Assembly: GCF_000004075.3 (NCBI RefSeq)
Contig: NC_026657.2
Location: 1,550,001 to 1,614,000, forward strand
Direction: 5' to 3'
DNA: 64,000 bases
From: Cucumis sativus
Lineage: Eukaryota > Streptophyta > Magnoliopsida > Cucurbitales > Cucurbitaceae
Part shown: positions 9,817 to 15,900 of the stretch, one piece after another
Numbering within the stretch: the stretch's first letter is position 1
How the letters are laid out: the number at the start of each line of letters is the position of its first letter
Program-made: the position numbers and the translations under genes
Notes under the pieces: model-generated
What the model was told of the DNA's origin: nothing
The model's input: the letters and a program-made list of their open reading frames with translations, nothing else
Databases searched by the model: none

Positions 9817-11290
9817 GATCAAATTGAAGTGATCCATATAAACACAGCCTTCTAAAACAACACTTCCAAGGATTCCTGCCTTATTTCACTACAGCTTTTG
9901 TTTTGTTTTGTTTCCTTAGTTTGATTTTTTTCTCTCTCTCTCTCTCTCTCTTTCTTTTTAAATCATCCATTCTTAATTACTCCTCCTAGTTCTCCATTAG
10001 AATAACTTGTTGTAGTAATTCATATGGGGAGTTTTACTCTTAAGACATTATTGAATTTTGTAATTCTACATATATTAACAGTTTCATATCTTCATAGAAG
10101 TTAGTATATTGTTTGATTTATTTATTTTTTTAACATCATATGTGGAAATAGTGTAGCCTCTTTCCTAATTCCCATCTTGTTATTTTTATTAACAGGTTAT
10201 AACTCACCTGCATTGAATTATATATTTTGTTGTAGCCTCCTATAAAATGTTTGTGTAAAGGATGAAGATTAGAAATTTGTGATTTACTGTGTAATGAGCC
10301 ATACAAAAAATTGTAATATATTTCAGTTTTTCTCCCTATCTATGTTTTAACAATTTCTTCATTTCTCTCACAAATTTGTAGCACATAGGGTAAACGCTAT
10401 AGTATTATGTAGTACAAACATATACCATCAATAAAGAGATGTTAGTTTTGTTGATTGTTTAGCAATAAATTAAATAGTTTTGATAAACTAAACAATCAAG
10501 TAGTTGAAGTAATTTTGAAGGTAGAATGTAGATTTTCTATCTAATCCAACAATGGAGTTGTAATCTAGTTATTGACTTTTGGAATAGTAAGTTCAAATAT
10601 TTGTGTAGTATTTTTTTTTTTAAGTTCTTGTATTATAAAATTAATGACAAAAGCATTTTTTTAAAAAAAAAGTTAATCATAAAATTTTGGATGAAGATTA
10701 TGAATGATAGACTTCTAACCAAGTTCTAAGACAATAAATAGTTTTACAATGTCAAGAAAATGCACTAAAATATTTATAAAATACAACTAAAGGTTCATAA
10801 TCTATCAATAATAGGTATTAATACATAACATTTCTATCATTTCTTAGTACAAACTAAAAGCAGAAAATTTGAACCAATAACGTCTTCAAGTACAAACATG
10901 TTTAAGTTAAACTGTATTTACTATTAATATTTTTTTTATATTTTATAAATATTTAGAACAATTTTAGGATTTGAAATAACTTTTCTAAATACTATAATAT
11001 AACTTCCATCCATAAAATTAAAAATGTTAAATTTTAATCTAATTTAGTATTAGAGGTAGTAATGAATACAAAAACATTAAAACTATTTTCACATATAGCA
11101 AAACATATTTGTTATATTTTAAAATAGTTATATTTTATTTAATTAATTAATTTGCTAAATTTGAAAATGCACTGTATATAAATAGTTGGAATAAATAATT
11201 TCTTACCATCTTTACAACTCAACTTACTTAATTTTCTAAAAAAAAAAAAACGAAAACACCAAGATAGCAATAAATAAATATATTATATAT
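9817..11290. other. Intergenic, AT-rich, between PRS and the snoRNA cluster
   Basis: Contains the probable PRS 3' UTR (to about 10.3 kb), a (TC)n microsatellite at 9930-9952, and very AT-rich sequence with many A and T runs beyond 10.4 kb. I see no gene or ordered repeat in it. Confidence 0.5.
9930..9952. repeat. (TC)n microsatellite
   Basis: Uninterrupted TC dinucleotides directly after a T run in the PRS 3' flank. Confidence 0.9.
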
Positions 11291-11500
11291 AGAGAGAAGT
11301 TTAGGGTTTTAGGGACTAAAAATAATATTATTGAAATATTCAAAATTGAGAAGGAATTAGGGTTTCATATTGGGAAGTTGCGTACATATACCTATAAATA
11401 CCCCCTCTTCCCATTTCCCTTTCATCGCTTCAATTTTCCTTCTTCCCTAATTCTCGACCTCTAGGGTTTCATTTCCTTCTCCTTCTCCTTCTCCTTCTCT
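11290..11500 (+). promoter_or_regulatory. Promoter and leader of the snoRNA cluster: telo boxes, TATA box, CT-rich leader
   Basis: Copies of the telo-box core (TAGGGTTT, reverse complement AAACCCTA) lie at 11302-11309, 11358-11365 and 11462-11469. A good TATA box, CTATAAATA, lies at 11392-11400, about 185 bases before the first snoRNA. A pyrimidine-rich leader with CCTTCT repeats follows at 11474-11500. Telo boxes near a TATA box are known from plant genes for ribosomal proteins, other translation factors and snoRNA clusters. This fits RNA polymerase II transcription of one polycistronic precursor on the + strand. Confidence 0.65.
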
Positions 11501-11580
11501 CTTCTTACGCCGCTTTTTCATTCTCAATTTTTTCTTCTCTAAGAACTTTGTTTTTCAATCGTATGTTTTGCTTTCCAACC

Positions 11581-11676
11581 AAAGCAATGATGAAAATCTT
11601 TTTTTGTGCCATAGCCGGCCTCTTTCCAGTGGTCGTCGGTGATGGCTACACATCCCTCTAAGAAGTTCTGAGCTTT
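11581..11676 (+). ncRNA. Box C/D snoRNA 1 (guide to an 18S rRNA site)
   Basis: About 96 nt. C box ATGATGA at 11587-11593, C' box TGATGG at 11640-11645, D box CTGA at 11668-11671. The ends AAAGC (11581-11585) and GCTTT (11672-11676) are fully complementary and form the expected terminal stem. The bases before the D box, CCCTCTAAGAAG (11654-11665), complement the conserved 18S rRNA segment CTTCTTAGAGGG as I remember it. By the rule of the fifth base from box D, this would place 2'-O-methylation on a U of that segment. No clear D' box was found. It is the first of three snoRNAs on the same strand, with no overlap of ends. The rRNA match is from memory and was not aligned. Confidence 0.8.
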
Positions 11677-11751
11677 TTTTAATTTTATTTTATTCAATTT
11701 CTTTACTTCGTTTTTGTTTGATTTTCTTTTTGTTTTAAGCAACTGAAAATT

Positions 11752-11839
11752 GCGAGGTGACGATAGAAATTCATGTCTGTCAATCCACTGACTGTATAAC
11801 AGTTTGATGTTATCATGAATCCCGACAGGTTCCGATCGC
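11752..11839 (+). ncRNA. Box C/D snoRNA 2, U33/snR55-like 18S guide with variant C and D boxes
   Basis: About 88 nt. Terminal stem GCGA (11752-11755) with TCGC (11836-11839). C-like box GTGACGA (11757-11763), canonical D' box CTGA (11788-11791), C' core TGATG (11805-11809), D-like box CCGA (11832-11835). Before D' the guide TCTGTCAATCC (11776-11786) complements 18S GGATTGACAGA. The fifth-base rule points at the first U of that GGAUUG, the site served in human by U33 and in yeast by snR55, as I recall. Both terminal boxes differ from consensus by one base each, and at facing positions of the kink-turn (see findings). It may be a functional variant or a decaying copy. The intact stem, guide and D'/C' pair favour function. 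Confidence 0.65.
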
Positions 11840-11919
11840 TCTTCCAATTTATTCTTTTGTTTTTCAATGTAATTGTTCTGATTCTGTTTTGGATTGGTTT
11901 GAATTTGTTTTGCTTTTTT

Positions 11920-12006
11920 GGGCACATGATGAATCTCATATCATCAAATGGGTAATTTGCGTCTGAATCATCATTGATGCTATTTTCACCTTGGAGAACT
12001 GATGCC
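11920..12006 (+). ncRNA. Box C/D snoRNA 3, U16-like double guide
   Basis: About 87 nt with all four boxes canonical or nearly so: C ATGATGA (11926-11932), D' CTGA (11963-11966), C' TGATGC (11975-11980), D CTGA (11999-12002). Terminal stem GGCA (11921-11924) with TGCC (12003-12006). The D' guide TGGGTAATTTGCG (11949-11961) complements the conserved 18S segment GCAAATTACCCA. The fifth base falls on the first A of GCAAA, the site known for human U16. The D guide TTCACCTTGGAGA (11985-11997) complements TCTCCAAGGTGAA, which resembles a stretch of plant 25S rRNA that I remember less firmly. This is the clearest member of the cluster. Confidence 0.85.
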
Positions 12007-12933
12007 TATTTAACAATTTCCATCTTCTTTGTTCTTGGGAATCTGTTTGTACGAAAAACCGTCCTCTTTGTTCTTCTTTTGATCAAATTTGTAGGTTTTT
12101 CATTCCCTTAGATTTTGGCTTCTGAGATCTCAACTCCTTGAACATGAAAGATACAAGCAGCCACATGGGCATTGATAATAGTCAGTTTGTGAGACCATTG
12201 CTTATGGAACTTCATTGTAAACCCTAATTAGAAATTTTATACTCTTGTAGATCCGAAATTATTTATTTTAATATAAAACAATGTTGAACATCAAATAGAA
12301 ATTTAGTAAAGGCTAATGAGCAGATGCCATAATTCCAAGCTTAAATTCATACCAAGAAATATCAAAATTCCAAAAAAGAAAATAGCCAAAATATGGCAAA
12401 ATGTATCAATTTGTTTTAGAATTTTAGCTTCTAAAGTAAAATTTGTTGAGATATTAATTGAAAATAAAAAAGGAGCTTTTTTCACCCAAATTAAAACGTT
12501 TAAGCTTAGAACAATTCTCAAGATAGAAGTATGTAAACAAGATTATTAACTAATGTAATTATGTTTTCAACCTAAATTTGAACCATATAAAAAAGCCCGG
12601 TGGCAAATCTTCCAAATAAATGGATATTAAGAAGAATGAATGGAAAAATCTTACCATAATAAAGAATGTGATGAGAAGTGTTGGGATACCAAACCATTCT
12701 AAACCTGTGACATATATCGATTGTTGAAAGCTTACTTTTTTTCCAAGTCAGAACAATGAATTGTGAGAAAATTTTCCTTTTGGTACAGAAATAAGAAACT
12801 GTGGATCTTAATAAGTGATCAAAGTTTCTTACAATTTTTTTTTTCAACTTTTGAGTACATTTTCCATGTGAATATGTAAGAAAGAGAACAAAACATTTTC
12901 ATTATTGGTGTAAACTTAGTGACTATATTAGAT
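12007..12933. other. Intergenic: snoRNA precursor tail and 5-phosphatase 3' flank
   Basis: Bases 12007-12240 continue the moderately AT-rich snoRNA transcript. I looked for a fourth snoRNA and saw only isolated box-like words without a terminal stem. From about 12240 to 12933 the sequence is AT-rich and probably includes the 3' UTR of the 5-phosphatase, which is read towards this region. The two transcription units converge here. Confidence 0.45.
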
Positions 12934-15900
12934 CTAGAACTCTAAATCATCATACTCCCCATTTTCGTCAGCAAAAAATTCAGGATGAATAGCAGCAGTA
13001 TTTGTGAAGTTCAAAGCTCTTTGCAATTTCCTGTGATCCAACACTTCAACTTCAACTTGGAACACCGAACTCACTGGCCTATGATCTGAAAGCCTTATAT
13101 CTGCATTCTTATAACACACTTGTTTAATCCCTTTTCCCATCCATAATATCCGATCACACCTGTCCAATTTTTACATGTTAAACAAAAAAGCTCAGCCGAT
13201 GTTGGTCTGAGTAGTAGCTAGCTGTTCATTCTATGTGGCTAATGTGATTTGTGTTCAAAATGTTGTAAATGTGAGTTACAGCCTATTGGATTCTAATAAT
13301 AACTTACCATGCTGGAGACCTTCTCTTCTCTCCTTCTCTTGGGATTTCGCCAATGTATCTATCTGAGTTGAATTCGTATTTATAGGTTGGAGGGAAATCT
13401 AATGTCCCTTCTTTCCATCCATCGAACACGTGCCCCATGCGTAGTTCTCTGATAAGCTGCAATAATACAAAACCATTCAGAGAACTACAACCATTCAGAG
13501 AACTACGAACTTAAGTTATTCATATTTTTGATTGAGAAACGGAAAAAAAGTAAAAAAACCGGGAACAGGTGTTATCAGCCATGAAGATATCATATTTTAG
13601 ATTACTTTGACATGTTAATTCAGAGACATCTTCTTCTACAACCTTTTGAAATTTGGGTGAAGTTATATAGGATTTTGTAGTCAATCAGCAATTAATCACC
13701 TGATCATAGTTGCTGAGTTCCTCCCACTTTTTTTGAGCAACAAGCCTCCTTACATCTGAGTCCGATGCATTCATACGATAATTCAAATCACCAAACCAGA
13801 ATATTTGACTGCTTGTAAAAACATTTGGTCACAATCTTACTCCAAAAGGATAATAGACGTATAGAATTAAGAGAGAATTCTATAGCAGTCATTTTCCAAC
13901 CTTAAGGGCAACCAGGCAGAATCAAAATATAATATTTTTGAAATACTTGGCAGTGTGAACAAAAATCATTTAGACAGACTAATCAAGTAATTCTCCATTC
14001 CTCAAATATACTATTCAGCTCGAATCTTAAACATACTTTCAGTATTCTAAACCAATGATAAAATGCGCAAAATTATGAATGGTGAAAGACTACTTACTCA
14101 TGGGATGGTATTGTCTGTGGCTGTCCTGAATCAAACATTGATGAAAAACACGTTCGTCTTATGATTTCATTTACGTCTGCATTACGCTTGAGTTCTGCTC
14201 CATCCTTCTGACCAGATGTCAGATGAGAACAAACGAAGCATAACCGTGACTGATAAAGAGACATGCTGACAGAAACAGACCCCTGCATCGGAATTCATTG
14301 CAACGATGTAAGCGAATAATCAAAACCAGGTAATGACGTGAAGTCTAAAGTCTTCCAAATCAGTAAAACTTATGCTCCTTACCATTACTTCGATGGGATG
14401 GATATAAATTCTTCCAATTCAAGGATTTACTTAGACGTAGGATATAGAAAATATATCATGATGTTCAAAAAGATCCTTTAAGCAACAAAGAAAAATTTAT
14501 CACTTGAAAAATGGCACCTTAGCAATGTAGAAAAGTAGTACCTTGTTTCCCATGTAGCCCATAAGACCAACTCCAACTGGAGAAACTTTCAAATTGTTAA
14601 CATGTCTCCTTAATCTCTTACGCACCCAAACTGACACGTATATTCCTACCATCTGCTTGCTGACGATTCTCACATATTTCGGGTAGGATTTCATACTCTC
14701 TGTTGGATCTTCGTCAACTTGTTCCATAAGTTCTGGAAAAGTATCTACTTCTTCAACAGAAATGTCAGATACATCAGAAAGAGAGTCCAGGACTTCTAAA
14801 GTGTCTTGCGGCGACTTCCAGGCTGAGATCAAATTTCCAGAACTACAGAATGTCCTTTTCAACCCATTTTCATTTATAGAAAAACTCTGTGGAGGGAATA
14901 TTAGAGGATTCTCCAAGCACTGGAAGCCAATTCTAGCAGAACTGCTGACTACTCTCCGCAATTTCGAATTAGATGAGACAGCTTGAGGGGTTGCATCTAA
15001 TGAATGTTCAGGCCAGTCTAATCTTTGGTCACAGTCAATGCCATAGATTCTACTTAACCGCAAATTCGAGTTCACGAGGTTTAATTTGTTAAGGGGATGC
15101 TGATCCAATTCAAAACCAACATTCACAGAAAATCCATCGTCTATTAGTTTTAACTGTTCGCCATTAACCTCATCTGCAAGTACATCAGCTACAGATGAAG
15201 TCCTCAATACTGGTGAGGGCGGGGCGCTATAGCTTTTGTGTTTGTCCTCAGATTTAGAAGACTTGTTCAGAGTTCTTCGAATGAGTGCCTCCCATTTTGG
15301 AATTGGTTTGTTATCCTCTGCTCCCAGCACATTCCCCGCATTTAAAGGGACTACTTCTTGGAAACTGCAAACATCCAATTTGACAAGATTGCATCAACAT
15401 CAGAAATTCGGAATATTCATAATTGATAAGGAATAGTGCATAACAGGAAAGAAACATGGGGCCTTAACACCGATGAAGTTCAGCCTAGGGTCTGGCAGCT
15501 GGCAAACTCTAACGCCAATACAAATTATATGGCAAGAGGCTGGATTTATTGCAAAAACACTGTTTGGAACCTTGAAACTTTGAGCTTGGCTACCAAATCT
15601 TTCATTACTTGCAATTCTTAAAAACTAACCTATCCGTCATTAAGTCATTGTTCTACATCCACAAGTAGGTCCATCAACTAACTCCTCAGTGAACCTTATA
15701 GATTTTCCTCAAATTGATCTGGGAAATCTCTATCTAATTGATGTAAGAAGTTGGGTGGAGTGAAAAAAGAAACTTAGTCTCTCAAAAGGTTCGAAGGTAA
15801 GGTAGCATGCGCCTAAAAGTAAAACTAGTAGTTGGCATAATCAGACCTTTTGTTAAAAGAAAATAATTACAGAAGAAGAAAAGATATGACATCTTCTCAT

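What the first reader, a model, noticed from the sequence alone, without database searches (positions are those of the whole stretch)
11290..12010. Unannotated polycistronic box C/D snoRNA cluster
Three + strand units, each with a terminal stem (AAAGC/GCTTT, GCGA/TCGC, GGCA/TGCC), C, C' and D boxes and a guide complementary to conserved rRNA, follow one telo-box/TATA promoter. Protein-based annotation would leave this locus empty or fill it with a false minus-strand ORF. Boxes and stems are seen directly. The rRNA matches rest on recalled rRNA sequence.
Basis: partly seen in the sequence, partly recalled or inferred. Interest (0 to 1): 0.8.

Follow-up and report, generated by a model that had tools for sequence, protein, structure and literature searches.

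The report
Ordinary plant snoRNA gene cluster
This stretch of a plant chromosome holds three known kinds of small RNA gene in a row (U61, snoR14 and snoZ101) that should guide chemical marking of ribosomal RNA; apart from one unusual letter in one motif, it is ordinary.

Summary
At gathering score, Rfam covariance models give three matches in the 64 kb window, all in this locus, on the + strand and full length: snoU61 (11582-11675), snoR14 (11752-11839) and snoZ101 (11917-12010), each with E below 1e-15. One correction: box D of snoR14 reads CCGA, not CUGA. I found no intact rDNA in the genome, so guides were tested against partial rDNA pieces of the same genome. Four of five pair beside their box over 12-15 nt; the fifth does so over 11 nt only with 25S sequence recalled from memory. 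For all five, the D+5 base agrees in letter with a mapped Arabidopsis site (PMC8053127). A U61-snoR14 cluster is published for rice and Arabidopsis (PMC5122169). So this is a standard polycistronic plant box C/D cluster: a new instance of a known kind, of low interest. 'Unannotated' could not be tested; an Rfam scan finds it. Mildly open: the CCGA box D, and whether the third gene (probably Arabidopsis SnoR15) is an old member.

The parts
11299..11309 (-). telo-box (GTTTAGGGTTT on +)
   Evidence: exact match to telo-box permutations listed in PMC4660826 (motif list)
11357..11365 (-). second telo-box
   Evidence: exact match
11393..11398 (+). TATA box (TATAAA)
   Evidence: sequence; role inferred
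11462..11469 (-). third telo-box, downstream of the TATA box, probably in the leader
   Evidence: exact match
11582..11675 (+). U61 box C/D snoRNA (terminal stem extends to 11581-11676); C 11587-11593, D 11668-11671
   Evidence: Rfam RF01170, 74.5 bits against gathering 55, E 9.9e-16, model 1-84/84
11653..11667 (+). U61 D guide to 18S
   Evidence: 15-nt duplex (14 Watson-Crick, 1 G-U) flush with box D (coordinates); near-box score reached by 2 of 500 shuffled guides
11752..11839 (+). snoR14 box C/D snoRNA; C GTGACGA 11757-11763, D' CTGA 11788-11791, D CCGA 11832-11835
   Evidence: Rfam RF01280, 90.4 bits against gathering 40, E 7.4e-18, model 1-84/84
11775..11786 (+). snoR14 D' guide to 18S
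   Evidence: 12-nt duplex (11 Watson-Crick, 1 G-U), 1 nt from D'; score reached by 10 of 500 shuffles
11820..11830 (+). snoR14 D guide to 25S
   Evidence: 11 Watson-Crick pairs with recalled plant 25S, 1 nt from box D; only 8 nt with the genomic piece L003, a score reached by 200 of 500 shuffles
11917..12010 (+). snoZ101 box C/D snoRNA (probable counterpart of Arabidopsis SnoR15); C 11926-11932, D' 11963-11966, D 11999-12002
   Evidence: Rfam RF00358, 92 bits against gathering 44, E 2.5e-17, model 1-96/96
11949..11962 (+). snoZ101 D' guide to 18S
   Evidence: 14-nt duplex flush with D' on three 18S pieces (14 Watson-Crick on L012; 13 plus 1 G-U on L007 and L008); best score reached by 0 of 500 shuffles
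11985..11997 (+). snoZ101 D guide to 25S
   Evidence: 13 Watson-Crick pairs on L036, 1 nt from box D (coordinates); 0 of 500 shuffles

Best explanation
A polycistronic box C/D snoRNA gene, U61-snoR14-snoZ101, apparently between protein-coding genes of a plant. RNA polymerase II would start shortly downstream of the TATA box at 11393, helped by telo-boxes. The precursor would be cut in the spacers and trimmed to three snoRNAs of about 88-96 nt. These would guide fibrillarin to methylate 2'-O positions equivalent to Arabidopsis 18S U1384 (U61), 18S U1235 and 25S U803 (snoR14), and 18S A440 and 25S C1860 (snoZ101). Shown here: sequence, family membership and guide complementarity (snoR14 D only on recalled 25S). 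Inferred: promoter use, co-transcription, processing, methylation and site numbering.
Against: No Site II element in 10900-12300. snoR14 has a non-consensus box D, CCGA. No expression data. The snoR14 D guide does not beat shuffles on the genomic 25S piece (200 of 500). The text of PMC8053127 names SnoR30, not SnoR14, for U803, unlike its table.
Confidence: 0.95

Rival explanations
1. The cluster is real, but snoR14 is decaying: the T-to-C difference in box D (CCGA) weakens assembly, so that its two sites depend on another guide or lose methylation.
For: Box D reads CCGA where the Rfam consensus has CUGA, next to a GUGACGA box C.
Against: The rest of the snoRNA fits its model closely (90.4 bits; alignment), both guides included; a decaying gene should show more changes. 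In the C/D k-turn the second letter of box D faces a non-Watson-Crick partner (recalled), so C may be tolerated. A DNA search with the locus returned no second full copy that could take over (only the best candidates are scored, and diverged paralogues could be missed).
Confidence: 0.12
2. The snoRNAs are produced from introns or exons of a longer host transcript and not from their own promoter.
For: A few plant snoRNAs are intronic (PMC5122169 background, passage). A pyrimidine-rich leader separates the TATA box from U61.
Against: No + strand ATG frame over 77 aa in 11000-12700 and no + strand frame of 110 aa or more near the locus. A TATA box and telo-boxes lie just upstream.
Confidence: 0.05
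3. A silent pseudo-cluster.
For: No reads available to show expression.
Against: Guides, boxes (with the one exception) and stems are kept in all three units.
Confidence: 0.02

Closest known systems
Plant U61-snoR14 cluster (rice cluster 49; Arabidopsis cluster given in PMC5122169 as 'U61-U14.1-U56')
   Same: U61 and snoR14 in one cluster (PMC5122169 section 6)
   Different: Here a snoZ101 gene follows. Whether the third Arabidopsis member ('U56' in that paper) is the same RNA could not be checked: Brown et al. 2001 (PMC1370220) is not held.
Rfam RF01170 snoU61, RF01280 snoR14, RF00358 snoZ101
   Same: Full-length matches above gathering score
   Different: Box D of snoR14 is CCGA where the consensus has CUGA
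Arabidopsis SnoR15
   Same: The two sites listed for SnoR15 in PMC8053127 Table 1 (18S A440, 25S C1860) agree in letter with the D+5 bases of snoZ101
   Different: Identity is inferred from target letters and recalled rRNA order; the Arabidopsis SnoR15 sequence was not compared, and the table also lists U16 for A440 and U55 for C1860

Membership tests
Box C/D snoRNA | Box C (RUGAUGA) and box D (CUGA) next to a terminal stem | tested here: met
   Strictly in U61 and snoZ101; in snoR14 only with the variants GUGACGA and CCGA
Box C/D snoRNA | Guide of at least 10 bp to rRNA next to box D or D' | tested here: met
   4 of 5 guides on rDNA pieces of this genome (12-15 nt), at least one in each snoRNA; the fifth, snoR14 D, 11 bp only on recalled 25S
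Rfam RF01170 / RF01280 / RF00358 | Covariance model score above gathering cut-off | tested here: met
   74.5 against 55; 90.4 against 40; 92 against 44 bits
Polycistronic plant snoRNA gene | Several snoRNAs on one strand, closely spaced | tested here: met
   Three units in 429 bp, spacers of 76 and 77 nt between Rfam borders
Polycistronic plant snoRNA gene | One common Pol II promoter and precursor | not testable with these tools
   A TATA box and telo-boxes lie upstream; no transcript data
Polycistronic plant snoRNA gene | Telo-box plus Site II elements in the promoter | tested here: inconclusive
   Telo-boxes present, no TGGGCY in 10900-12300; PMC4660826 reports a rice snoRNA cluster with Site II but no detectable telo-box (passage), so both need not be present
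Box C/D snoRNA | Stable small RNA with the predicted ends; methylation at D+5 | not testable with these tools
   no reads or RiboMeth-seq data for this species at hand

The most novel reading that the evidence does not exclude
snoR14 in this lineage works, or is regulated, with a non-canonical CCGA box D (with a GUGACGA box C), a natural variant of the C/D k-turn that would show how far box D can drift in a working guide.
Probability: 0.3. Interest if true: 0.25.

Novelty: new member of a known kind. Interest (0 to 1): 0.1.

Why it matters
It confirms one more conserved guide-RNA cluster that a protein-only annotation would miss, but an Rfam scan finds all three genes at once. The single point worth a specialist's glance is the CCGA box D of snoR14.

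Tried and rejected
Intact rDNA of the genome: the genome search with Rfam SSU/LSU families gave no answer (RF01960; RF02543). A 23-base 25S pattern found 0 matches. DNA and pattern searches returned partial or diverged rDNA pieces; I did not examine every match, and searches scored only 40 of 57 and 40 of 856 candidates, so an intact copy is not excluded. Every guide test therefore uses pieces or recalled 25S.

A fourth snoRNA: the permissive Rfam scan of 11000-12700 listed five matches: the three families, a fungal family overlapping snoZ101 (Afu_294, below its gathering score) and a weak mir-22 match far below its gathering score. The generic C/D scan gave nothing else in the window.

A second copy of the cluster: the DNA search returned the locus itself and one 53-bp fragment.

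Two scripts had faults. One search used L037 on the wrong strand and all 3 kb of L012, so I use only its coordinates, not its shuffle counts (there shuffles reached at most 14, 14 and 12 against best scores of 13, 13 and 14). One search cut L036 before its target, so its snoZ101 D row shows no duplex. One search corrects both.

Full report
What is there. Rfam release 15 on the whole window gives three matches at gathering score, all + strand and full length: snoU61 11582-11675 (74.5 bits), snoR14 11752-11839 (90.4 bits) and snoZ101 11917-12010 (92 bits). ARAGORN found no tRNA in the window. A generic C/D scan over both strands of the 64 kb finds 3 hits on + (these three) and 0 on -, against a mean of 0.25 per strand in 20 mononucleotide shuffles; the box patterns were widened after I had seen snoR14.

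Boxes. U61 and snoZ101 have canonical C (AUGAUGA) and D (CUGA). snoR14 has C = GUGACGA, as in the Rfam consensus, and D = CCGA, where the consensus has CUGA. A 53-bp paralogous fragment on contig C6 begins inside this box D, at its CGA, and runs into the spacer, so it does not settle whether CCGA is old.

Guides. I found no intact rDNA in the assembly, so I took eight partial rDNA pieces from the same genome (5612 bases in all). The best near-box duplexes, with the number of 500 shuffled guides that reach the same near-box score, are: U61 D with 18S, 15 nt, 2 of 500; snoR14 D' with 18S, 12 nt, 10 of 500; snoZ101 D' with 18S, 14 nt, 0 of 500; snoZ101 D with 25S, 13 nt, 0 of 500; snoR14 D with the 25S piece L003, 8 nt, 200 of 500. 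With 25S sequence recalled from memory, the snoR14 D guide makes 11 Watson-Crick pairs. L003 differs from the recalled sequence at two bases of that stretch. Selection matters here: six of the eight pieces (L003, L007, L008, L031, L036, L037) were located with recalled queries that contain the expected target; L012 was found through its likeness to L008, and L010 by a query whose target part lies outside the match. The duplexes thus show that this genome carries rRNA letters that the guides fit, flush with or one base from the box, but the shuffle counts are not those of a blind scan. I leave the confidence unchanged, because it rests mainly on the Rfam scores.

Targets. The D+5 bases are U (U61 D), U (snoR14 D'), U (snoR14 D), A (snoZ101 D') and C (snoZ101 D). 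Table 1 of PMC8053127 (section 12 read) lists Arabidopsis sites U1384 for U61.1, U1235 and U803 for SnoR14, and A440 and C1860 for SnoR15: five of five letters agree. The same paper's text names SnoR30 for U803, where its table names SnoR14, and calls U803 a low-score site. The numbering was not computed, because no Arabidopsis rRNA was at hand. snoZ101 = SnoR15 is an inference; the table also lists U16 for A440 and U55 for C1860.

Promoter and surroundings. Telo-box permutations lie at 11299-11309, 11357-11365 and 11462-11469, and a TATAAA at 11393; no Site II element lies in 10900-12300. Telo-box and Site II are described as highly enriched in promoters of polycistronic plant snoRNA genes in PMC4660826 (abstract and passages). 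The locus appears intergenic: outside the cluster, the nearest stop-to-stop frames of at least 110 aa in 1-26000 are at 2867 and below and at 14500 and above; spliced genes with short exons were not sought. The minus-strand ORF across the cluster (78 aa) overlaps snoRNA sequence and needs no protein explanation.

Known or new. PMC5122169 (section 6 read) reports the U61-snoR14 cluster as rice cluster 49, corresponding to an Arabidopsis cluster, and says both families appear in the mesangiosperms. The barley paper PMC4368757 (passages) uses U61 and snoR14 as candidate reference RNAs for qPCR, so both are expressed there. The locus is therefore an instance of a known kind. Whether this copy is already annotated could not be tested. 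The genome size (226.6 Mb) would fit cucumber, but that is recall and was not tested.

Verdict. Observation confirmed, interpretation supported, interest low. The CCGA box D of snoR14 is the one unusual detail.

Noticed in passing
L002:1501-1553 (G000:C6:20186049-20186101) against window 11833-11885: A 53-bp, 89% identical copy of the last bases of snoR14 plus spacer lies on another large contig, starting inside box D; Rfam gave no match in L002 at gathering score.
   Followed up: partly
window 11832-11835: Box D of snoR14 reads CCGA where the Rfam consensus has CUGA.
   Followed up: partly
L008 (query positions about 765-962 of the 18S piece) and L010 (first 90-103 bases of the 25S piece), own genome: Parts of these partial rDNA pieces recur widely: 36 of 40 listed matches cover only the 3' end of the query (87-94% identity), and 38 of 40 only its first 90-103 bases (93-99%). 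Those ends may belong to repeats and not to rDNA.
   Followed up: no
window 14500-15393 (-): Open frame that resembles a plant inositol polyphosphate 5-phosphatase exon (my recognition from memory; no family search run).
   Followed up: no
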